Source: Pseudomonas viciae
Lineage (GTDB): Bacteria; Pseudomonadota; Gammaproteobacteria; Pseudomonadales; Pseudomonadaceae
NCBI RefSeq assembly: GCF_004786035.1
Contig: NZ_CP035088.1
Span: 4,848,001-4,912,000 of the forward strand
Direction: 5' to 3'
DNA length: 64,000 nucleotides
This document shows, piece after piece, positions 20,391 to 34,548 of the stretch (within the stretch, counting starts at the first letter, position 1; every line of letters begins with the position of its first letter). The notes under the pieces were generated by a model. The model was not told the origin of the DNA. It searched no databases and saw only the letters and a program-made list of their open reading frames with translations. A program made the translations under genes and the position numbers.

Positions 20391-22602
20391 CGAAACAAGG
20401 CTCCTCGACCGGCCGCACTTTCAGGTTCGATGCACTGCCCCAATCTTGTGGTTTCTTGTAACCCCAGGGCCGCACGCCACTCTTAGGCAATGCTGATAGC
20501 CGGACCTTGCGCCAACCCAACCGGTGCATGATCGCTCCAACGCGCATCTGTTCAGGTTTGCCCCAATGTCCGTAGTCCAGCTTCAAAGCGCCCAATAGAA
20601 TGTCGGTGCCGGTCGCCGTCTCTCCAACCTGATAATCCTCGAGCCAAGTCAGGATGGGGCCTTCCCACTCGTCCACCACAAAGCGCTCTTCCTGGGCCTC
20701 AGCGAACAATGGCGCCTCCTCCCGGTTGACCCACCAGATATCGCCGGACTGATAGCAAAACATCGCCTCGGCCCACAGCTGGTCGCGGATCTCGCGCAGT
20801 TGCTCCAGGTCGACCTTGGTACATGCCACCGGCCAATAACGCCGGTTGCCCGTGGCATCCTTCAGGTACTCGTCCTGGTTCGTCGTACCCACGAAAACAC
20901 ACTGGCGTGGCACGTCCATCGTTCTGCGGCCATAGCTCTCGCGGTAGGTATCCGTCGAAGCCGAGAAGAACTGCTTCGCCTTGGTGGACTCGGCCTTGTT
21001 GAAACTGTCCAGCTCACCCAGCTCAACGATCCACTTGCCGCGAATCGCCTGGAACCCGTCCTTGTCGCCCAAGGCGAAGGGGGTATCCATAAACCAGGCA
21101 CCTCCCAGCACCGACATGGCCGTGGACTTACCGGCACCCTGCGCGCCTTCGAGGATCATCACCGAGTCAGCCTTGCAGCCCGGCTGCATCACCCGGCCGA
21201 CCGCCGAGACCATCCAGCGCTTACCCACCTTGGAACTGTAATCCGTCGGGGCCACGCCCATGATGTCTGTCAACCAGGTGTCGAGCCGGGGTACCCGATC
21301 CCACTCCAGGCCACTGAGGTAATCACGAACAGGGTGAAAGGCATGGTCATGTGCAACAACACTTACAGCCTCGATAACGCTGCTCGCCTTGACCCGCAGG
21401 TTGTACTGTTGCGCGAGCCACTTCATGACCAGCATGTCATCAATGTCAGCCCAATCGCCGACACCGCCGCCATACGGGGCAGCACGCAGCTTGACGATCT
21501 TTGAGCTGAACGCACTGAAGCCAATCACACCGGCCCAGCGTTCGTCGTTGCCCAGGATCAGCTCTACGTTTTGCATGTGCGCGATCAACATGCCGTTTTC
21601 CGTGCGAGCCAACTGGTCTTTCCAGCCACCCGCTGCAGGTGGCTTGACCACCGCCAGAACCTGGCGGCGCACCGCCTCCAATCCTTCAGCACAGTGCAGG
21701 TCGTTGAAGTCAGTCCACTTGTCCTCTCGCTCCCCAGAAAAGATAGGGCCGACTACCTGACCACCTACAACCGTTGCCGCGTTGTTGGCTTTCTCTTCAC
21801 CTGGGTTCCAGGGCTCGCCATTTGGGCGCTTGGTTTTCCAGTCATCATCCCGGCAGATGATTAGTGGACGCCCCGGGAACCGCTCGCGCATTGCCTTGGA
21901 GACCGTCATGAGGTTGCCCGCATCAAAGGCAATGGCTACCGTCAACGAGGTCGCCATGTGCAGGCTTGCACCGGTGGCGTAGCCCTCACACACCAACACT
22001 GGCTCGCCCGGTTCAGGGTGCGGACCAATGAGGTGGAAGGCGCCCTCCTTCGCCATCCCATAGGGCCAGTAAGACTTGTCGCGGCCAGTGTCTTCTTGCT
22101 TCTCGGGGAATATCACTTGCAGTCCGACGATCTGGTCCCGAGCGTTTTGCATGGGCACCAAAACCGCGCCGGAGCGCGGGGCATAACGAACGCCGAGGCC
22201 TACGATCTGCTTTCGATCCAGATAGGCGCTACGGCCCTTCTCGGGCATCCGCTTGAATAAACCAGCAGCACGGTTAGCCGCTCGACTGGCAGCGTTGGCA
22301 GCCTTCTCGGCGGCCTTGCGCTTGGCCTCCTCCTGACGAGCGCGCATGACTTCACGCTCTTCAGGTGTCATCCGGCCGGGTTTCACCTTGATCTTGTGCG
22401 TTTCCCCTGTACGCCAGTCGCCGAACGCACCGAAGATCAAGGTTTCGCCCTTCTCGGTGTGGTGCTCGTGCAGAACGTACCAGCCGTTTTTCTCTTTGCC
22501 CTTATCCAGAGCGGTCTTGCATCGAGTCAGCTTGCCGTAAATCAGCGGCTGCGCGGGCTCCAGACCGAAGTCCGCAAATTGATTCAGCACGTCATCGAGC
22601 AT
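20383..22602 (-). CDS. phage replication primase-helicase (TOPRIM + VapE-like ATPase)
   Basis: A 739-residue fusion protein. The start MLDDVLNQFADFGLEP at 22602 follows GGGAGG. Residues ~80-115 are a charged, Ala/Arg-rich coil. The TOPRIM domain shows VLVCEGYATGASLHM (~202-216) and ICRDDDW (~250). The C-terminal virulence-associated-E type P-loop domain carries Walker A GAQGAGKST (~486-494), a Walker B-like WIVELGELDSF and the arginine region TGNRRYWPV. It would prime and unwind phage DNA. It is intact and the only replication gene seen. Confidence 0.92.
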   Translation of the reverse strand: MLDDVLNQFADFGLEPAQPLIYGKLTRCKTALDKGKEKNGWYVLHEHHTEKGETLIFGAFGDWRTGETHKIKVKPGRMTPEEREVMRARQEEAKRKAAEKAANAASRAANRAAGLFKRMPEKGRSAYLDRKQIVGLGVRYAPRSGAVLVPMQNARDQIVGLQVIFPEKQEDTGRDKSYWPYGMAKEGAFHLIGPHPEPGEPVLVCEGYATGASLHMATSLTVAIAFDAGNLMTVSKAMRERFPGRPLIICRDDDWKTKRPNGEPWNPGEEKANNAATVVGGQVVGPIFSGEREDKWTDFNDLHCAEGLEAVRRQVLAVVKPPAAGGWKDQLARTENGMLIAHMQNVELILGNDERWAGVIGFSAFSSKIVKLRAAPYGGGVGDWADIDDMLVMKWLAQQYNLRVKASSVIEAVSVVAHDHAFHPVRDYLSGLEWDRVPRLDTWLTDIMGVAPTDYSSKVGKRWMVSAVGRVMQPGCKADSVMILEGAQGAGKSTAMSVLGGAWFMDTPFALGDKDGFQAIRGKWIVELGELDSFNKAESTKAKQFFSASTDTYRESYGRRTMDVPRQCVFVGTTNQDEYLKDATGNRRYWPVACTKVDLEQLREIRDQLWAEAMFCYQSGDIWWVNREEAPLFAEAQEERFVVDEWEGPILTWLEDYQVGETATGTDILLGALKLDYGHWGKPEQMRVGAIMHRLGWRKVRLSALPKSGVRPWGYKKPQDWGSASNLKVRPVEEPCFDD

Positions 22603-22819
22603 GACGAGCCTCCCGCATCTCATCGATGGACTGACAGTTCACACACTGCGTGCAGCCCTGCTGTGCCAGTCGCCGTGCCTCGGGGATCGGATCGTCACAG
22701 CTTTCACAGAACAACAACGAATGCCCAGGCAACGCCGGCTTGAACGCACTGCGCGCAGCAAGCGCCTGATCGATGCGCTCCTGCACCAAGTCATTGGCAA
22801 AATCAGCAATATCAGCCAC
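22592..22819 (-). CDS. TraR/DksA-type zinc finger protein
   Basis: A 75-residue protein. A DksA/TraR-like C4 zinc finger is visible: FCESCDDPIPEARR with CTQCVNCQ (CxxC-n-CxxC). The N-terminal helix reads ADIADFANDLVQERIDQALA, typical of phage TraR-like proteins. The start is taken as GTG at 22819, overlapping the CII-like stop; no ATG is available. Small phage DksA-like proteins bind the RNA polymerase secondary channel; here this is family knowledge, not shown. Confidence 0.85.
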   Translation of the reverse strand: MADIADFANDLVQERIDQALAARSAFKPALPGHSLLFCESCDDPIPEARRLAQQGCTQCVNCQSIDEMREARHAR

Positions 22820-23330
22820 GGCCGTCACCCCGCGTTGTCTGGTTGACGTACGTGGCGCGGTTGAACAAGCCCAGCAGCCCCTGGATACCTCGAAACACCT
22901 GCAGGCGGATCGCGGCCAGCTCGTGATCGCTGACCACCCCATCGCCAATGCTCTTGGCCCAGGTGTCGGCCAGATCGGCCACCTGCCGAAAATACTCGGC
23001 AAGACCGATGGTCAGGGTTTCGGGCATGTCAGTGGTGTACACCTCAGACAGCTCATGCCAGATCGTATCGCCGACCAAGGCATGCACCGCATCCAGAATG
23101 CGCCTGTCCTTTGTCAGCTCGAGGATCTCGCCAAACTCTTGAATGTTTACCGAGTGGCTGGGATGCGTGGGGGACAGTTTGTGCTGCAGCGTGGTGGGGT
23201 TTCGGCCGGTGGTGGCGGCGATTGCAGCGGCGCCGCCTGGGTAGTCCCGTGCGGCATGGTAAAGCGCCAGATCGAGCGGCAGGACTTCCCGCTGTGCTCG
23301 TTCAACGCAACTCAGAGCGATTCGGCTCAT
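22812..23330 (-). CDS. phage regulatory protein CII/CP76 family
   Basis: A 172-residue DNA-binding regulator. LYHAARDYPGGAAAIAATTG then RNPTTLQHKLSPTHPSH is the family's helix-turn-helix opening, followed by a conserved helical region (NIQEFGEILELTKDRRILDA). The start ATG at 23330 follows AAGGATT. It is the second gene of the leftward lytic transcript after cro. In P2 relatives such proteins activate or repress early genes; the exact role here is unknown. Confidence 0.85.
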   Translation of the reverse strand: MSRIALSCVERAQREVLPLDLALYHAARDYPGGAAAIAATTGRNPTTLQHKLSPTHPSHSVNIQEFGEILELTKDRRILDAVHALVGDTIWHELSEVYTTDMPETLTIGLAEYFRQVADLADTWAKSIGDGVVSDHELAAIRLQVFRGIQGLLGLFNRATYVNQTTRGDGRG

Positions 23331-23566
23331 GGCATTAATCCTTAAAAGTTGCCAGTGCCGCGCGACATGCAGTGGTGATACATTTGCCGCGTGGCTTGAA
23401 AGGGCCCAAACGCCGGCTAGATCTTAGGGATCGATACCGGCACCGTGCCGGGGCGAACAATCCGTTGTTCACCCCTGGCGCAACAGCTGCCCAATCTGTG
23501 GTGGAAAAGGCAGCAACACCAAGGCTTCCGAGCCTTGGGAAAGCGCGATAAAGAGAGGTGGTTTGC

Positions 23567-23662
23567 ATGTGGTGTGCCCGCCTATCTTTATCGCGACCCG
23601 ACAGCGCTGTGGTGGTGCGTGCCGGGAGGAACTGGGCGACCTTTGGGTCGCCTTTTTTCTAA
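23567..23662 (+). CDS. micro-ORF inside the structured RNA
   Basis: 31 codons, ATG at 23567 to TAA at 23662. The peptide begins MWCARLSLSRPDSAVVVRAG and ends NWATFGSPFF. A plausible ribosome binding site, GAGAGG (23553-23558), lies in the 5' arm of the large hairpin and the ATG lies in its loop, so initiation would be structure-controlled. Its last codons are encoded by the terminator stem and T tract. The layout recalls small Ash-type phage ORFs that also end in a hairpin, a weak resemblance. It may be translated or only part of the RNA. Confidence 0.35.
   Translation: MWCARLSLSRPDSAVVVRAGRNWATFGSPFF
23635..23658 (+). terminator. rho-independent terminator, plus strand
   Basis: GGCGACC and GGTCGCC pair around a four-base loop and are followed by TTTTTT. 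It points rightward, toward the 3' end of cro, and has no T tract on the minus strand. It therefore marks the end of a plus-strand transcript from the cro-cII interval. Confidence 0.8.
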
Positions 23663-23883
23663 GCTGCGCGGGCCAGGACAGGCTCCGGAGGAAACACATC
23701 ATCGAGCGTGCAGGTAGCCCCGAGTCGATTCAGTGCAGCCGTTATGGCGCGACAATCACTCAACCCAGGCATCCGATTACCTGACTCGTAGTTACTCAAT
23801 CGAGCCTGCGTCCAACCCAGCACCTGCCCCAGATCTCTTTGCTTTATTTGTGCCTCTTTCCTGAGGCGAGCGATGTTATTCAT
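23659..23883 (-). CDS. Cro-like helix-turn-helix repressor
   Basis: A 74-residue XRE-family DNA-binding protein. The start ATG at 23883 follows AGAGGAG. The helix-turn-helix is LRKEAQIKQRDLGQVLGWTQ with ARLSNYESGNRMPGLSD. It is divergent from cI, first gene of the leftward transcript and under the operator cluster at 23916-23974, so it is the cro equivalent. Confidence 0.88.
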   Translation of the reverse strand: MNNIARLRKEAQIKQRDLGQVLGWTQARLSNYESGNRMPGLSDCRAITAALNRLGATCTLDDVFPPEPVLARAA

Positions 23884-23909
23884 GGAATTGACTCCTCTAG
23901 TCAGCGCAG

Positions 23910-23938
23910 AGAATAAACACATTACGTGATTTATTCAA
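23910..23938 (-). promoter_or_regulatory. leftward early promoter (PR-like) for cro
   Basis: On the minus strand TTGAAT (23933-23938) and TATTCT (23910-23915) are spaced by 17 bases. The spacer is almost exactly the operator at 23916-23930, so repressor binding would block RNA polymerase directly. The cro start lies 27 bases further on. Confidence 0.7.
23916..23930 (+). promoter_or_regulatory. repressor operator 1 (AACACATTACGTGAT)
   Basis: A perfect copy of AACAC-N5-GTGAT, in the spacer of the cro promoter. One of three sites between cro and cI, at 21- and 23-base centre spacing, about two helical turns each, as expected for cooperative repressor dimers. Confidence 0.7.
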
Positions 23939-23985: not shown

Positions 23986-24696
23986 ATGGATACTTTAGGC
24001 TCACGCATCAAGCGACTTAGGAAACAGAAACGCATCAGCCAGAAGGCCTTAGCGGAGGTCTGCGGCTGGTCGTCTCAATCCCGAATAGGTAACTATGAGA
24101 GCGATCTCAGGGAGCCAAACCTGATGGACCTTGCCCTTTTAGCCCCTGCATTGGGGGTGACGGTGGCAGAACTCATTAGCGGCACGAACTCAACACAGTC
24201 GGCTTTAGCAGGACATGAAGATGCGTCGATAGCTGTATCGAACTCTTCAGATGGGGCGGCAAGGCTGATAGGCCCCGCCAAAACAGGAGTCGTGCCAGTG
24301 GTAGGCACAGCGAAACTAGGGATGGACGGCTATTTTGAAGCCTTGGACTTCCCGGTAGGCCACGGTGATGGCTACCTGCACATTTTCAGCGATGACCCAA
24401 ATGCTTATGGCTTGAGGGTCATCGGCGACAGCATGCATCCGCGAATCAAAAGCGGAGAATACGTCCTGATAGAACCGAATAAGGCCTATGTTACCGGTGA
24501 TGAAGTCATGGTTCAGACTTATGACGGCCGCTCGATGATCAAGGAGTTCATCTATCTACGAGAAGGCGTGTATCGGTTCGATAGCGTCAATCAGGACCAT
24601 AGTCCATTGCACCTGGACCAGCACGAAGTGATGAAGGTCCATCTGGTTGGCGGCATCCTTAAATCATCACGGTTCACGCATGAGCCTCAAAAATAA
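23986..24696 (+). CDS. CI-type repressor, XRE + S24 peptidase
   Basis: A 236-residue lysogeny repressor. Residues 1-65 are an XRE helix-turn-helix (RIKRLRKQKRISQKALAEVC, SRIGNYESDLREPNL). Residues ~100-230 form a LexA/UmuD-like S24 domain with likely nucleophile Ser149 in RVIGDSMHP and general base Lys186 in GRSMIKEF. The cleavage site is not obvious: no Ala-Gly appears in the GTAKLG region. The domains predict inactivation through RecA-stimulated self-cleavage. Operators lie on both sides of the gene, and the stop overlaps operator 4. Confidence 0.93.
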   Translation: MDTLGSRIKRLRKQKRISQKALAEVCGWSSQSRIGNYESDLREPNLMDLALLAPALGVTVAELISGTNSTQSALAGHEDASIAVSNSSDGAARLIGPAKTGVVPVVGTAKLGMDGYFEALDFPVGHGDGYLHIFSDDPNAYGLRVIGDSMHPRIKSGEYVLIEPNKAYVTGDEVMVQTYDGRSMIKEFIYLREGVYRFDSVNQDHSPLHLDQHEVMKVHLVGGILKSSRFTHEPQK

Positions 24697-24737: not shown

Positions 24738-24772
24738 TGCCTCACTCTTCCACCACAGAGCGAGGCAAAATC

Positions 24773-24949
24773 ATGCACACCACAGCATCCCTGCACGTCC
24801 ATCCGGCCGTTGCCGACCTATCCCGCATCTTCGAAGTAAGGCGCCTGGCCCGCATTTACGGCTGCACCTTCATCCCTTCTAAACCTAAGCAACACGCCCG
24901 TACCGAACCGACTTCCTTCGATCCAAACGACGGAGGCCGGGCGGCATGA
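24773..24949 (+). CDS. small phage protein, unknown
   Basis: A 58-residue protein, first of the rightward operon. The start MHTTASLHVHPAVADLSRIF at 24773 follows GAGG; an in-frame ATG 36 bases upstream lies too close to the promoter. The core VRRLARIYGCTFIPSKPK is basic. It overlaps the next gene by 4 bases. No family recognised. Confidence 0.65.
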   Translation: MHTTASLHVHPAVADLSRIFEVRRLARIYGCTFIPSKPKQHARTEPTSFDPNDGGRAA

Positions 24950-25540: not shown

Positions 25541-25825
25541 ATGGAGCGCAATCTCGAAAAGACCGCCAAACACTTCGGCCTGACCCGCCCCGCCCTAATC
25601 AAGCTCATGCGTGAGAAAGGCCTGCTCACCGACCGCAACCTGCCGGCGTTCCCCGTTCGTGACCGTGAATACCTGCGGGTCAAGGACAGTAATTGGTACC
25701 ACGACACGCTGGGCATGCAGTACAGCCAATCGACCCGCGTCCGGCAGGCCGGCATCCCCTGGCTAGCAGAGCAACTGGGCCTCGACCTTCCTGCCATCCC
25801 GGCAGAAAGCCGTGACGTGGCCTAG
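25541..25825 (+). CDS. KilAC-domain antirepressor-like protein
   Basis: A 94-residue protein matching the C-terminal KilAC domain of phage antirepressors: AKHFGLTRPALIKLMREKGL and then MQYSQSTRVRQAGIPWLAEQ. The start ATG at 25541 follows TAGGAGG. There is no N-terminal ANT/Bro domain, so it is a stand-alone DNA-binding module. It is placed in the repressor-controlled operon, where an antirepressor or early regulator would make sense. Confidence 0.78.
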   Translation: MERNLEKTAKHFGLTRPALIKLMREKGLLTDRNLPAFPVRDREYLRVKDSNWYHDTLGMQYSQSTRVRQAGIPWLAEQLGLDLPAIPAESRDVA

Positions 25826-25991
25826 GGAATACGCCCGCCAGATCATCGCCCTACGCACTCGAGAGGAGCGCAACGCCGCGCTTCTTGAGGTGCCGGAGCA
25901 TCTGCGCGAGCTAACCAAACGCCACTGCCTGAATGCCTGGAACCACCCGGCCCGACACAAACACATGGAGAGCCAAAAACCTCATGAGTAA
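25812..25991 (+). CDS. small phage protein (WPREYA type)
   Basis: 59 codons with a GTG start at 25812 overlapping the KilAC gene and ending inside the PrtN start (8-base overlap). The text TWPREYARQIIALRTREERN then LLEVPEHLRELTKRHCLNAW is like a small protein common in Pseudomonas prophages that starts with a WPREYA motif. Charged and helical, function unknown. Compact overlaps on both sides support that it is real. Confidence 0.65.
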   Translation: MTWPREYARQIIALRTREERNAALLEVPEHLRELTKRHCLNAWNHPARHKHMESQKPHE

Positions 25992-26313
25992 CCAGCCTCA
26001 AAATCCGCTGCGCCTGATGCCGGCACCAGAGACGGCCACCATCGAGCTGCTGTATCGCACCTTCGGCGACGTGCTTATCCCCCTCGAAAAGCTGCGCGTG
26101 CAGTACTTCCGCAATATCAACGCTGAGCGATTTTCAGCGGAGATCAACAGCGGACGCATACAGCTTCCAGTTACGACCCTGGACGGTAGTCGTAAGGCCT
26201 TGAGGTACGCACACATCCGCCACGTCGCTGCACTCATCGACATCCAGGCGTACAAGGCCGACGAAGTCCACGCGAAGACCCACGCCGACGCAACTGAAGA
26301 AACCCAACCGTAA
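25984..26313 (+). CDS. PrtN-like pyocin activator family protein
   Basis: A 109-residue protein matching the PrtN family: TIELLYRTFGDVLIPLEKLR, NAERFSAEINSGRIQLPVTT, RYAHIRHVAALIDIQAYKAD. In P. aeruginosa PrtN activates R/F-pyocin promoters after DNA damage. The start ATG at 25984 overlaps the previous gene; an upstream in-frame extension is not needed. Being inside a phage operon under CI, it may activate late phage genes or interfere with host tailocin control. Confidence 0.88.
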   Translation: MSNQPQNPLRLMPAPETATIELLYRTFGDVLIPLEKLRVQYFRNINAERFSAEINSGRIQLPVTTLDGSRKALRYAHIRHVAALIDIQAYKADEVHAKTHADATEETQP

Positions 26314-26357
26314 AGGCTGCCACCACCAGCCACCCAAAACCACCTGGAGCACACCAC

Positions 26358-26786
26358 ATGACTGCAATTCAAATCTGCGCATTGATCGGCCTGATCCTAG
26401 GCTACGGTCTCATCTACTGGACCGGCTATCGAGGCGGCCTTCTTGACGGCCGCGTTGAAGGTCACATGGCAGGTATCGTAGAGGGCACCAACGACGAACG
26501 CGCCGCCAACGCCAAAACCATCCGCGAACTGGAGGCATCCCTCCAGTTCATCCGCGCCGATCACAAGCACCTCGCTGCCCACGCGAAACAGCTGGGTGAA
26601 AACAAAGCCTTCGGCCCTCAAGAGCGCCAAACGCTTATACAGATCGCCGAAAAACTCAGGCTAGCCTCTGACACTTTCCGCGCCATGAGTTCGAAAGCAC
26701 AGGCACAGCAGGCGCTCGACCTGCGCGAAAAAGCACTGGGCATGGCCGCTTTGCTGGATCAGGTCAAAGTGGAGGACGCAGCATGA
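26358..26786 (+). CDS. membrane-anchored coiled phage protein
   Basis: A 142-residue protein. One N-terminal transmembrane segment (ICALIGLILGYGLIYWTGY, residues 5-23) is followed by a long soluble helix rich in Ala/Glu/Lys (TIRELEASLQFIRADHKHLA). The layout resembles spanin-like or anchored scaffold proteins, but it is in the early operon, so lysis is unlikely. It overlaps the next gene by 4 bases. Unrecognised. Confidence 0.65.
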   Translation: MTAIQICALIGLILGYGLIYWTGYRGGLLDGRVEGHMAGIVEGTNDERAANAKTIRELEASLQFIRADHKHLAAHAKQLGENKAFGPQERQTLIQIAEKLRLASDTFRAMSSKAQAQQALDLREKALGMAALLDQVKVEDAA

Positions 26787-27543: not shown

Positions 27544-28124
27544 AGCACGAACAGAACAACACCCAAACCCAGTCCGCTTTGCTCCGCAGCGCCAGTTGGG
27601 TCGACGCGCCTGTAAACAACAGTCTCTGCTGCGCAGCAGCAGGCATTACTGCTTCTTTCCAAGCCTCCGCCGAGGCACTTATACCCCACGAAAGGCTGCG
27701 CCGGGCAGCAGCATCTGAAGCCACGCTGATAGCTCAGAACCGCCCGCCCGCGCAGCCTGCCTTGGGGTATACGCACTTCGACACCGCAGCGGATCCGCCA
27801 CCGCTGCAGTACCAAGTGGACAAGATTCCCGAGGACAAAATGGCCGAGTTGGTCGGTACGACCCGCCGAGCATTGCAGGGCAAACGCGCCAGAGGGGTCA
27901 TCCCTAAAGGGGTCTGGAACACCATCGACAATCGCATCTATTACAGCATCAGGAGATATGAGGCATGGCTCGAAAGCCAATGGGATTGCCCACCGGAGTT
28001 GAATTTGTCGGCCAGTCCGTCAGGATTCGCTTCACCTGGAACGGGCAACGCCGTTGCGAAACCCTCCCCTATCCCCAGACACCGAAAGGCATTAAAGCGG
28101 CATCCGATCTACGCGCTAACGTAA
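27540..28124 (+). CDS. excisionase-like protein overlapping integrase
   Basis: A 194-residue protein. The ATG at 27540 has a good AGGA site and overlaps the HD gene stop. Residues ~93-145 (VDKIPEDKMAELVGTTRRAL, WNTIDNRIYYSIRRYEAWLE) resemble excisionase-type winged-helix proteins that sit before integrases. The N-terminal ~90 residues are low-complexity and contain an inverted repeat in DNA. The 3' end overlaps the integrase gene by 160 bases in another frame. The role is inferred from position and the central motif. Confidence 0.55.
   Translation: MKHEQNNTQTQSALLRSASWVDAPVNNSLCCAAAGITASFQASAEALIPHERLRRAAASEATLIAQNRPPAQPALGYTHFDTAADPPPLQYQVDKIPEDKMAELVGTTRRALQGKRARGVIPKGVWNTIDNRIYYSIRRYEAWLESQWDCPPELNLSASPSGFASPGTGNAVAKPSPIPRHRKALKRHPIYALT
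27680..27771. repeat. inverted repeat within the excisionase-like gene
   Basis: A 20-base arm at 27680-27699 (beginning TATACCCCA and ending AGGCTGC) pairs with 27752-27771 at 16 of 20 positions, with a 52-base loop. It could be an integrase/excisionase arm site or a folded mRNA element controlling downstream translation. Confidence 0.5.
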
Positions 28125-29155
28125 CCAGCCTGATCAAGCATGGCGTTCTCGACGACCAACGCTATGCCGAGCTGTTTCCCAACTCCACTTATGCCACCTA
28201 CTCGGCTACTCCCCGCTTCGGGGAGTATGCCCAAGAGTGGTTAAACAGTCGGGAGGTCGTAGCAGGCACACGCAAGAACTACCGGGCATCCCTCAATCTG
28301 TACTGGATGCCTCACCTAGCCCTGCTACCCGTCGACGGCATTACCTCGGTGCTGCTGCGCAAAATCGTAGCCAGCACTGAATGGAAATCGCCGGGCGTTA
28401 AGCGCTCGGCAATCCAGCGACTGACTACGGTGTTCAGCACCGCCGTCAAAGATGGCCTGATCAATCGCAATCCAGTCGAGTCCATTGAGCTTCCCGTGAA
28501 AACGAAAAAGCCCATCGACCCCTTCACGATGGCAGAAGCCAACGCCATCATCGAGCACCTCTATAAAACGCTGACTCATTCGATGCGGGTCTACGCTGCT
28601 TACTTCGAGTTCGCCTTCTATACCGGAATGCGCCCTAGCGAAATAGCGGCCCTGCGCTGGGACGAGGTAGACAAGCAGAAACGCTTAGCCACCGTGTGTC
28701 GGATCGTCGCGGACTATAAGATCGAGGAGCGCACCAAAACCCGCAATGAACGGCAAGTGATGCTCAATAGCCGGGCCATGCACGCCATTGAGGTCGCCGA
28801 GCAAATCGCCGAACAACGTGCGAAACAGAGCCGTAGAAAGCACGCGAAGTCTCCCTATGTGTTCCCACCCACGAAGAATTTTGAGTTCATCCAGCAGTCC
28901 AGCGTCACCGACAAGCATTTTCAGGCGGCTCTGACCGAATTAGAGATTCGCGCCCGTCGGCAATACAACTGCCGACACACATACGCCACCATGTGCCTCA
29001 TGGCGGGGATGAATCCCGCATTTATTGCCACTCAGTTGGGTCACAGTGTTCAGATGTTACTTACAACCTATGCACGATGGATAAACTCCAATACCGACTG
29101 GAGTGAGCTTAGTAAATTGGAGAACAATATTAATAGCTTTAATGCTCAGCAATAG
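27965..29155 (+). CDS. tyrosine recombinase integrase
   Basis: A 396-residue phage integrase. The N-terminal arm-binding domain is of the DUF3596 kind (GVEFVGQSVRIRFTWNGQRR). Catalytic residues are visible: Arg223 (TGMRPSEIAALRW), Arg347 (YNCRHTY, with Tyr at the usual first-His place), His370 (QLGHSV) and nucleophile Tyr379 (TTYARWI). The start at 27965 follows AGGAG. The last ~12 residues (ENNINSFNAQQ) are AT-rich in DNA and differ from the relic copy downstream, so the tail may have been replaced by recombination. Confidence 0.95.
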   Translation: MARKPMGLPTGVEFVGQSVRIRFTWNGQRRCETLPYPQTPKGIKAASDLRANVTSLIKHGVLDDQRYAELFPNSTYATYSATPRFGEYAQEWLNSREVVAGTRKNYRASLNLYWMPHLALLPVDGITSVLLRKIVASTEWKSPGVKRSAIQRLTTVFSTAVKDGLINRNPVESIELPVKTKKPIDPFTMAEANAIIEHLYKTLTHSMRVYAAYFEFAFYTGMRPSEIAALRWDEVDKQKRLATVCRIVADYKIEERTKTRNERQVMLNSRAMHAIEVAEQIAEQRAKQSRRKHAKSPYVFPPTKNFEFIQQSSVTDKHFQAALTELEIRARRQYNCRHTYATMCLMAGMNPAFIATQLGHSVQMLLTTYARWINSNTDWSELSKLENNINSFNAQQ

Positions 29156-33198: not shown

Positions 33199-34548
33199 GT
33201 GGAAAGCCGCAAACCCGAAGCCCAGACGCTGGACCTTTCGCCGCCACTACGCAGTGGCTGGCTGGAACGCCTCTTCAAACTCAGCTTGCATGGCACCACG
33301 GTGAAGACCGAGCTGATCGCCGGCCTGACCACCTTCATCACCATGGCCTACATCATTTTCGTCAACCCCAACATCATGGCCGACGCCGGTATCGATCACG
33401 GCGCCGCGTTCGTCGCCACCTGCATCGCCGCCGCCCTGGGTTGCCTGTTGATGGGCTTGTACGCCAACTGGCCGGTCGGCCTGGCGCCGGGCATGGGCCT
33501 GAATGCCTTCTTCACCTACACCGTGGTTGGCACCATGGGCTACAACTGGGAAACCGCGTTGGGCGCGGTGTTTGTTTCCGGCGTGCTGTTCATGGTCCTG
33601 ACCTTGTCGCGGGTACGTGAGTGGCTGCTCAACAGCATTCCGGTGAGCCTGCGGTTCGCCATGGGCGCGGGGGTCGGATTGTTCCTCGGGCTGATCGGCC
33701 TGAAAACCGCCGGGATCATCGTCGACAGCCCCGCGACCCTGATCAAGCTCGGCTCGTTGCGCGAACCCGGTCCGCTGTTGGCCGCGGTGTGCTTTTTGAT
33801 GATCGCCGTACTCAGCTACCACCGCGTGTTCGGCGCGATCCTGATCAGCATCATCGCCGTGACCCTGGCTGGTTGGGGCCTGGGGTTGGTGCAGTACAAC
33901 GGCGTCATGTCGACGCCACCCAGCCTGGCACCGACCTGGATGGCAATGGACGTCGCCGGCGTGTTCAACGTCAGCATGATCAGCGTGGTGCTGGCCTTCC
34001 TGTTCGTGCACATGTTCGACACCGCCGGCACACTGATGGGCGTCGCCCAGCGAGCCGGGCTGGTGAAAGCCGATGGCAAGATCGAGAACCTGTCCCGCGC
34101 CTTGAAAGCCGACAGCGCCTCCAGCGTATTCGGCGCGATGGTCGGTGTGCCGCCAGTGACCAGCTACGTGGAAAGCGCGGCCGGTGTCGCGGCAGGTGGC
34201 CGGACGGGGCTTACCGCCGTGACGGTCGGTGTGCTATTTATTGCCGCGATGTTCTTCGCGCCGCTGGCCGGGATGATCCCGGCCTACGCCACCGCGGGGG
34301 CTTTGATCTACGTCGCCATGTTGATGATGGGCGGTATGGCTCACATCGAATGGGACGACGCGACCGACAGCATCCCAGCCATCGTCACGGCCATCATGAT
34401 GCCCCTGACCTTTTCAGTGGCCGATGGCATTGCGCTGGGTTTCATCACCTATGTCGTACTCAAGGCCGGCACGGGGAAACACAAGGAAATTTCTGTCAGC
34501 CTGTGGGTGCTCTGCGCGATCTTCATCGCCAAGTTCATCTTCTTGTAG
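33199..34548 (+). CDS. NCS2-family purine permease (AzgA/GhxP-like)
   Basis: A 449-residue inner-membrane transporter with about 12-14 hydrophobic segments. Signature text: TTVKTELIAGLTTFITMAY, PVGLAPGMGLNAFFTYTVV, FLFVHMFDTAGTLMGVAQRA and VPPVTSYVESAAGVAAGGRT, typical of the adenine/guanine/hypoxanthine branch. The GTG start at 33199 follows GAGGAG. Position next to urate catabolism genes and the TTGTATACAA box supports import of purine bases for degradation. Confidence 0.92.
   Translation: MESRKPEAQTLDLSPPLRSGWLERLFKLSLHGTTVKTELIAGLTTFITMAYIIFVNPNIMADAGIDHGAAFVATCIAAALGCLLMGLYANWPVGLAPGMGLNAFFTYTVVGTMGYNWETALGAVFVSGVLFMVLTLSRVREWLLNSIPVSLRFAMGAGVGLFLGLIGLKTAGIIVDSPATLIKLGSLREPGPLLAAVCFLMIAVLSYHRVFGAILISIIAVTLAGWGLGLVQYNGVMSTPPSLAPTWMAMDVAGVFNVSMISVVLAFLFVHMFDTAGTLMGVAQRAGLVKADGKIENLSRALKADSASSVFGAMVGVPPVTSYVESAAGVAAGGRTGLTAVTVGVLFIAAMFFAPLAGMIPAYATAGALIYVAMLMMGGMAHIEWDDATDSIPAIVTAIMMPLTFSVADGIALGFITYVVLKAGTGKHKEISVSLWVLCAIFIAKFIFL

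What the first reader, a model, noticed from the sequence alone, without database searches (positions are those of the whole stretch)
23437..23662. Undescribed structured antisense RNA in the immunity region
Five hairpins in a row on the plus strand, two capped by TCCG loops, one an 18-bp stem, and a final terminator. The RNA would run against the cro-cII transcript, a place for lysis-lysogeny control like lambda OOP or C4 RNA, but with its own architecture. The large stem hides the start of a 31-codon ORF.
Basis: partly seen in the sequence, partly recalled or inferred. Interest (0 to 1): 0.7.

Follow-up and report, generated by a model that had tools for sequence, protein, structure and literature searches.

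The report
Phage antisense RNA silencing early genes
A Pseudomonas prophage carries a small folded RNA whose hairpin loops match the start sites of genes elsewhere in the same phage, so it probably switches them off when the phage chooses to stay dormant; the sequence evidence is strong, but the RNA has not yet been shown in cells.

Summary
In detail: 23437-23662 (+) has five hairpins plus a terminator, folds far better than shuffles (z -7.3) and covaries in relatives (34 of 73 pairs changed on both sides, 0/500 shuffles). The RNA probably starts near 23391 and ends at 23658, before cro. Rfam has no match.

The interpretation shifts. Two loops match other mRNAs: one (23495-23506) fits, over 12 nt, the leader hairpin of the first gene after cI; another (23566-23577) fits, over 12 nt, the start of the gene at 26358. 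In 69 phages, 112 of 928 gene starts on that strand match the phage's own RNA over 11 nt or more, 109 of them in these two families; 6 of 1571 do on the other strand. At the second target loop and target change together between three phage groups; Halomonas phages show the same design.

TGGCA-N15-TGCCA upstream has the half-site spacing of phage 186 CII, so CII probably activates the RNA.

Best reading: a CII-activated, multi-loop, trans-acting antisense RNA repressing early genes. It works like P1 C4 RNA but is no C4 family member. The 31-codon ORF is not conserved. Expression and repression are untested.

The parts
23330..23354 (+). Inferred CII operator TGGCA-N15-TGCCA (half-site centres 23332 and 23352, 20 bp apart); overlaps the start of cII
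   Evidence: Spacer 15 found 392 times in 361 (overlapping) loci, any other spacer from 5 to 30 at most 74; exact in 78 of 95 distinct regions chosen by cII alone, with looser letters and spacer 13-16 in 94 of 95; also in Haddon L001, Halomonas L311, L032, L019
23355..23384 (+). Inferred promoter: weak -35 GTGCCG (23355-23360), -10 TACATT (23379-23384)
   Evidence: By eye; -10 at a similar distance in relatives: TAGAGT (Haddon), TACACT (L019), TATAGT (L032), TATATT (L311); no transcript data
23391..23658 (+). The antisense RNA (start inferred, end at the T-run)
   Evidence: Fold and covariation; GCCTTTTTT in 85 of 87 distinct regions chosen by cII alone, 8 divergent ones left out
23412..23441 (+). 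Hairpin H0
   Evidence: Inner stem: 3 of 4 pairs changed on both sides
23445..23481 (+). Hairpin H2, UCCG loop
   Evidence: 5 of 15 pairs changed on both sides
23486..23514 (+). Hairpin HA; loop 23495-23506 TCTGTGGTGGAA complementary to T1
23519..23538 (+). Hairpin HB, UCCG loop
   Evidence: 3 of 8 pairs changed on both sides
23544..23595 (+). Hairpin HC; loop segment 23566-23577 CATGTGGTGTGC complementary to T3 and, over 10 nt, to codons 1-4 of gene 1
23597..23626 (+). Hairpin HD, loop CTGTGGTGG; possible partner of T2
   Evidence: 6 of 9 pairs changed on both sides; T2 pairing inferred
23635..23658 (+). Intrinsic terminator with six T
24739..24766 (+). Target T1: leader hairpin of gene 1 with GAGG (SD) in the stem; loop match 24748-24759
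24773..24949 (+). Gene 1, 58 aa, unknown function; 24775-24784 pairs with HC
   Evidence: PHROG 35204, unknown; 56 homologues, none with a functional name
25541..25825 (+). Downstream gene in the target operon with a match to the antirepressor KilAC (ANT) domain
   Evidence: PF03374 E 4.8e-7; PHROG 63 anti-repressor Ant E 1.3e-6, behind an unknown-function PHROG at E 9.1e-33
26315..26331 (+). Target T2: hairpin GGCTG-CCACCAC-CAGCC before the gene at 26358
   Evidence: Mostly conserved loop, stem letters vary but stay mostly complementary (by eye)
26349..26360 (+). Target T3: GCACACCACATG, from the SD edge through the start codon of the gene at 26358
   Evidence: 84 of 90 distinct target-RNA pairs match over 10 nt or more
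26358..26786 (+). Target gene, 142 aa, hydrophobic N-terminus by eye, function unknown
22812..23330 (-). cII, 186-type CII activator
   Evidence: PF06892 Phage_CP76 E 1.3e-20; PHROG CII-like E 9.4e-28
23659..23922 (-). cro-like gene
   Evidence: HTH_3 E 8.5e-10
23986..24696 (+). cI-like repressor
   Evidence: HTH_3 and Peptidase_S24

Best explanation
The region encodes a noncoding RNA of about 268 nt, transcribed toward cI from a promoter next to cII and ended by an intrinsic terminator just before cro. Its hairpin loops are antisense to translation starts in the operon on the other side of cI. Loop HA pairs with the leader hairpin of gene 1, loop HC pairs with the first codons of gene 1 and with the start codon region of the gene at 26358, and HD may pair with a hairpin before that gene. 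Pairing blocks ribosome binding, so the RNA represses these early genes and, through coupled translation, perhaps the KilAC-domain gene between them. CII made early in infection probably turns the RNA on through the TGGCA-N15-TGCCA site, so the RNA favours lysogeny. Shown by comparison: structure, target complementarity, and co-change of loop and target. Inferred: transcription, CII control, direction of the effect, effect on lysogeny.
For: Structure: (46 sequences; 34 of 73 pairs changed on both sides; 0 of 500 shuffles). Target scan: in 69 phages with distinct type-1 RNAs, 112 of 928 ORF starts on the target strand match the phage's own RNA over 11 nt or more; 60 belong to the gene 1 family, 49 to the 26358 family, 3 to neither. 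On the opposite strand, outside the RNA locus, 6 of 1571 do. T3 swaps: own match 11.7 (type-1, 75 pairs), 12.0 (L236-type, 2 pairs) and 10.9 nt (Haddon-type, 11 pairs); every cross match 6.0-7.1; 0 of 2000 shuffles reach the real mean. Compensatory changes: L236 and L285 have loop CATTTGGTTTGC with target GCAAACCAAATG. Halomonas L311, L314 and L321 have three different gene 1 starts, each matched by its own RNA over 12-13 nt. T1: 153 of 174 distinct pairs match over 10 nt or more, up to 18 nt in L061; own mean 12.3, shuffled 11.6, 0 of 2000. Linkage: 159 of 183 pattern hits sit beside cII; of the other 24, 4 lie on viral-contig slices where cII would fall at the slice end and 20 are in non-Pseudomonas genomes without cII. 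In regions chosen by cII alone, 8 divergent left out, the HA core CTGTGGT is in 87 of 87 and the HC loop in 86 of 87. Operator spacing; 186 CII half-sites at -38 and -58 (passages of PMC6593788).
Against: No transcript data; promoter and start site are read by eye. Pair types do not fix the strand. T1 does not discriminate between type-1 and Haddon groups: type-1 leaders match Haddon RNAs (mean 14.5) better than their own (12.5), and L236-type leaders likewise (12.0 against 11.0); only the Halomonas group, and weakly the GGTAAG group, stand apart there. At the gene 1 start L236-type and GGTAAG pairs are no better than some foreign ones. Of 14 loci listed with the GGTAAG loop only 7 have the perfect T1 partner. 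Halomonas L315-L318 mismatch at codon 2 of gene 1. 6 of 90 T3 pairs fall under 10 nt. L230, L288 and L081 have a changed HC loop, and their T3 was not in the set. The L236 and Haddon groups are small or closely related, so the T3 swap rests on three lineages. T2 matches HD over only 8 nt in most type-1 phages. The Haddon version has no clear terminator before cro (by eye). In T1 the SD is already in a stem, so opening is not excluded. Matches of 12-13 nt also occur elsewhere in the window (33385, 37499). RNA not found for 16 of 254 gene 1 loci by my pattern.
Confidence: 0.83

Rival explanations
1. Simple cis-antisense RNA like lambda OOP: full-length pairing with the cro-cII intergenic RNA, leading to its cleavage and lower CII.
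For: The RNA lies opposite that transcript and both strands fold.
Against: Does not explain the conserved loops, their match to T1 and T3, or the loop-target co-change. It may happen in addition.
Confidence: 0.07
2. Leader or attenuator of a 186 pE-like transcript that runs on into cI; the hairpins set read-through.
For: Position, orientation and operator spacing match pE. The Haddon version shows no clear terminator.
Against: Terminator with six T in 85 of 87 regions chosen by cII alone, 8 divergent left out; a terminator-like end also in the Halomonas version; does not explain target complementarity.
Confidence: 0.05
3. The matching sequences are DNA sites of a regulator, present at both loci in opposite orientation.
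For: A DNA site and its partner would also change together (reasoning; no call).
Against: Several different sequences each match their own partner; they sit in loops of covarying hairpins and across start codons.
Confidence: 0.03
4. A small protein is encoded (31-codon ORF) and the structure controls it.
For: The ATG lies in the HC loop, kept in 86 of 87 regions chosen by cII alone, 8 divergent left out.
Against: ORF length 5-98 codons, 31 in 59 of 173; the loop ATG is lost in L236/L285 together with a matching target change.
Confidence: 0.01

Closest known systems
C4 antisense RNA of phages P1 and P7 (Rfam RF01695)
   Same: One loop pairs with sequence upstream, another at the ribosome-binding region, in an operon linked to an antirepressor (C4 as described in passages of PMC5320573 and PMC12197685).
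   Different: No match to the C4 model; about 268 nt inferred rather than 77; own promoter beside cII; at least two target genes.
Phage 186 pE promoter and CII
   Same: CP76-family CII gene, promoter toward cI next to cII, half-sites 20 bp apart near -38/-58.
   Different: In the window type a terminator precedes cro, while 186 pE makes CI; no such leader RNA is mentioned in the passages I saw.
Lambda OOP RNA
   Same: Small RNA antisense to the cII region of the immunity locus (passage of PMC12197685).
   Different: OOP acts on cII itself; here the conserved loops match other mRNAs.
P22 sar RNA
   Same: Antisense block of antirepressor translation (passage of PMC12197685).
   Different: sar is 68/69 nt and the passage names one target, ant; here several loops and targets.

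Membership tests
C4 antisense RNA (RF01695) | Matches the family covariance model | tested here: not met
   No hit at gathering in the window nor at E up to 10 in 23300-23700
C4 antisense RNA (RF01695) | Loops complementary to the target leader and ribosome-binding site | tested here: met
C4 antisense RNA (RF01695) | About 77 nt, processed by RNase P (passage of PMC5320573) | not testable with these tools
   Needs RNA data
C4 antisense RNA (RF01695) | Represses an antirepressor | tested here: inconclusive
   Target operon holds a KilAC-domain gene; repression not shown
186 pE (CII-activated promoter) | CP76-family CII gene adjacent | tested here: met
186 pE (CII-activated promoter) | CII half-sites 20 bp apart near -38 and -58 | tested here: inconclusive
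   TGGCA-N15-TGCCA has the spacing, about -59/-39 of an inferred start; CII binding not tested
186 pE (CII-activated promoter) | Drives cI | tested here: inconclusive
   A terminator intervenes in 86 of 87 regions chosen by cII alone, 8 divergent left out; read-through unknown
Lambda OOP RNA | Main conserved pairing is with cII mRNA | tested here: not met
   Conserved loops match T1 and T3; pairing with cII mRNA in addition is not excluded
P22 sar RNA | Blocks start of antirepressor translation by pairing | tested here: inconclusive
   Start regions paired are those of gene 1 and the 26358 gene, not of the KilAC gene directly

The most novel reading that the evidence does not exclude
A lysogeny circuit in which CII, instead of or besides making repressor, makes one multi-headed antisense RNA that silences several early genes at once. 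Because the CII-RNA-target set is shared by phages with different Cro proteins, it may give cross-immunity between phages with different repressors; the finding that Haddon-type RNAs match type-1 T1 leaders even better than their own RNAs do would fit such cross-action.
Probability: 0.35. Interest if true: 0.82.

Novelty: new variant of a known kind. Interest (0 to 1): 0.72.

Why it matters
The phage RNAs of this kind that I could compare (C4, sar, OOP) are few and from enteric phages. This one is common (48 of 298 genomes of a genus sample at E 2.3e-16 or better, my count), has a counterpart in Halomonas phages, and offers natural matched and mismatched loop-target pairs that make the mechanism directly testable. 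It would also put a small RNA downstream of a 186-type CII.

Tried and rejected
Coding: no family hits for ORFs in the RNA and unstable ORF length. Rfam: none. Named phages and plasmids: no place covering 80% of the query; phage Haddon gave a 45-nt match that led to the divergent type. Other CP76 genes: 4 of 185 genomes in a class sample had a match; in the three besides the window's own, the fetched slices held no TGTGGTGG or CCACCACA, and two had loose operator-like matches. Strand test by pair type: not decisive. Considered and dropped without a test: protein sponge, tRNA 3'-end binding, G-quadruplex, Chi-like DNA site. Literature searches for a published description; among the papers listed (11 of 11, 20 of 159, 20 of 2491, 10 of 10,744, 10 of 17, none found), no title or abstract opening describes it; the library lacks most subscription journals.

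Redundancy and selection: loci from different calls overlap, so counts by locus are inflated; searches use distinct sequences. The 176-sequence set was gathered by the HA, HC and promoter motifs and a terminator pattern, and 4 of 180 were lost at the terminator and de-duplication step, so loop, ATG and T-run conservation in it is partly by construction; the set chosen by cII alone (95 distinct regions, 8 divergent set aside) is the fair one. One search used 46 of the 176, picked by identity below 94.5% and length of at least 285. The 69 phages all carry the type-1 HC loop by selection. One search kept 174 distinct pairs after dropping L280 and L300 (no CCAC in the leader found). The regular expression missed most loci and was replaced.

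Full report
What is there. It folds at -119.9 kcal/mol, z -7.27 against shuffles; the other strand also folds well, z -5.74. It lies between cro (23659-23922, -) and a CII gene of the 186 type (22812-23330, -; PF06892 E 1.3e-20), with a cI-like repressor beyond (23986-24696, +). Rfam gives nothing at gathering thresholds for the window and only weak matches far under their gathering scores at E up to 10 for the region.

It is conserved and structured. Viral loci were fetched by Cro (46) and by CII (the best 80 of 453); where both genes were found, the cro-cII distance was mostly 313-331 nt, longer in a few divergent loci. Of 183 hits, 159 sit beside a cII gene; of the other 24, 4 are on viral slices where cII would fall at the slice end and 20 are in non-Pseudomonas genomes without cII. 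In a sample of 298 genomes of the genus, 72 match at E 1e-3; 48 match at E 2.3e-16 or better, and the other 24 match only short stretches toward the terminator end (my count from the list). Among 95 distinct regions chosen by cII alone, 8 are divergent; in the other 87 the HA core CTGTGGT is present in 87, the HC loop in 86 and GCCTTTTTT in 85. From 176 motif-selected distinct sequences I chose 46 diverse ones and counted a hand-drawn structure: 94.9% of cells paired, 34 of 73 pairs changed on both sides, 0 of 500 shuffles as good on any measure, slid structures far below.

Which strand. Pair types alone do not decide (135 G-U against 112 A-C cells in pairs shared by both strand folds; by helix HD, HT and HA lean to plus, HB to minus; at H2 the variable pairs pass through A-C). 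The T-run after the last hairpin and the targets below point to plus.

The promoter. An inverted repeat TGGCA-N15-TGCCA lies at 23330-23354. In 361 loci this spacer occurs 392 times, no other spacer from 5 to 30 more than 74 (loci overlap); it is exact in 78 of 95 distinct cII-chosen regions, and a looser form is in 94. It is also in Haddon and Halomonas L311, and in L032 and L019 it sits before a second copy of the hairpin set, away from cII. For phage 186, CII half-sites are centred at -38 and -58 of pE, and CII-activated pE produces CI (passages of PMC6593788). Here the centres would be about -59 and -39 of a start near 23391, itself inferred by eye. CII control is therefore an inference, though a good one.

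The targets. Scanning the window for complements of the RNA gave two 12-nt matches at gene starts of the same prophage: TTCCACCACAGA (24748-24759) for loop HA, and GCACACCACATG (26349-26360) for loop HC; two 13-nt matches lie at 33385 and 37499, beyond the integrase-like ORF at 27965-29155 (integrase named by eye). The first is in the loop of a hairpin that holds the GAGG of gene 1 (24773, 58 aa); the second runs from the SD edge through the start codon of the gene at 26358. HC also matches codons 1-4 of gene 1 over 10 nt (24775-24784). Predicted duplexes of HA-T1, HC-T3, HC-gene 1 and HD-T2 are -21 to -27 kcal/mol.

Conservation of pairing. In 69 phages with distinct type-1 RNAs, 928 ORF starts on the target strand were compared with the phage's own RNA: 112 match over 11 nt or more, 60 in the gene 1 family, 49 in the 26358 family and 3 in neither. 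On the opposite strand, outside the RNA locus, 6 of 1571 do (the first version of this scan had not left the locus out on that strand). At T1, 153 of 174 distinct pairs match over 10 nt or more in the leader, up to 18 nt in L061 and 15 nt in Haddon. At T3, 84 of 90 distinct pairs reach 10 nt or more.

Co-change of loop and target. At T3, type-1 targets match their own RNAs over 11.7 nt on average, L236-type 12.0, Haddon-type 10.9, while every cross-combination gives 6.0-7.1 (75, 2 and 11 pairs). L236 and L285 differ from type 1 at two loop positions, both compensated in the target. In Halomonas phages the gene 1 starts of L311, L314 and L321 differ from each other and each matches its own RNA over 12-13 nt, while L315-L318 have an uncompensated change there; and the leader loop GCCCACCAC matches RNA loops GTGGTGGGC. 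Against this, T1 does not separate all groups: type-1 leaders match Haddon RNAs better (14.5) than their own (12.5), L236-type leaders too (12.0 against 11.0), and at the gene 1 start the L236 and GGTAAG groups are no better with their own RNA than with some foreign ones. In 14 loci listed with the GGTAAG loop, T1 has in no case the usual CCACC, but only 7 of 14 fit perfectly. Shuffling partners over all pairs never reached the real mean at T1, gene 1 start or T3, 0 of 2000 each; related sequences inflate such tests, so I rely on the separate lineages.

How it most likely works. The RNA is trans-acting: T1 and T3 lie over 1 kb away in another operon. At T3 the duplex covers the start codon, which argues for repression. 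At T1 the SD is already in a stem, so repression is likely but opening is not excluded. Genes 1 and 2 overlap by four bases; a gene with a KilAC antirepressor domain match follows (PF03374 E 4.8e-7; PHROG Ant E 1.3e-6, behind an unknown-function PHROG), then a PrtN-like gene (PF11112 E 2e-27), then T2, T3 and the 26358 gene. A CII-activated RNA that holds down this operon would favour lysogeny. T2 (a hairpin with loop CCACCAC) matches HD over only 8 nt in most type-1 phages, but matches the Haddon RNA over 11-12 nt in that group, so I count it as probable.

Comparison with known systems. C4 RNA of P1 and P7 pairs through one loop with upstream sequence and through another with the ribosome-binding site, and controls an antirepressor (passages of PMC5320573, PMC12197685 and PMC8546580). 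The likeness in action is close. Membership is not: no match to the family model, a different inferred size and place, and more than one target gene. OOP acts on cII itself; sar on ant (passages). Six literature searches listed no paper on this RNA in the titles and abstract openings shown.

What remains open. No transcript evidence; the start site and CII binding; direction at T1; function of gene 1 and of the 26358 gene (listed homologues are unnamed, hypothetical or, in two cases, given unrelated names); the missing clear terminator in the Haddon type; and whether the shared loops give immunity between phages with different repressors.

Noticed in passing
L019-L022 and L032, L034, L035 between cro and cII: The cro-cII gap is longer and, in those read (L019, L021, L032, L034, L035), holds two sets of hairpin-like sequences with GTGGTG motifs; the second set has its own promoter-like sequence, with TGGCA-N15-TGCCA checked in L019 and L032.
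   Followed up: partly
L048-L127: CII is 86-100% identical to the window's in these loci while a Cro like the window's was often not found by tblastn, partly because slices end; CII and the RNA may move apart from cro.
   Followed up: no
window 25984-26313: PrtN-like pyocin activator gene (PF11112, E 2e-27) in the target operon; PHROGs calls the family excisionase.
   Followed up: no
window 22592-23002: ORF with a DksA/TraR-like zinc finger between cII and the primase; such a gene is also annotated there in Haddon, U5 and Halomonas H4907.
   Followed up: no
window 23370-23384: CAGTGGTGATACATT inside the promoter is nearly invariant in the motif-selected family, which was not selected for it.
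   Followed up: no
H2 helix, 23445-23481: In this helix variable pairs pass through A-C rather than G-U in the 176-sequence set, as if also constrained on the minus strand.
   Followed up: partly
all loci: TGGCA-N21-TGCCA also occurs 74 times, more than other spacers except 15; origin not examined.
   Followed up: no
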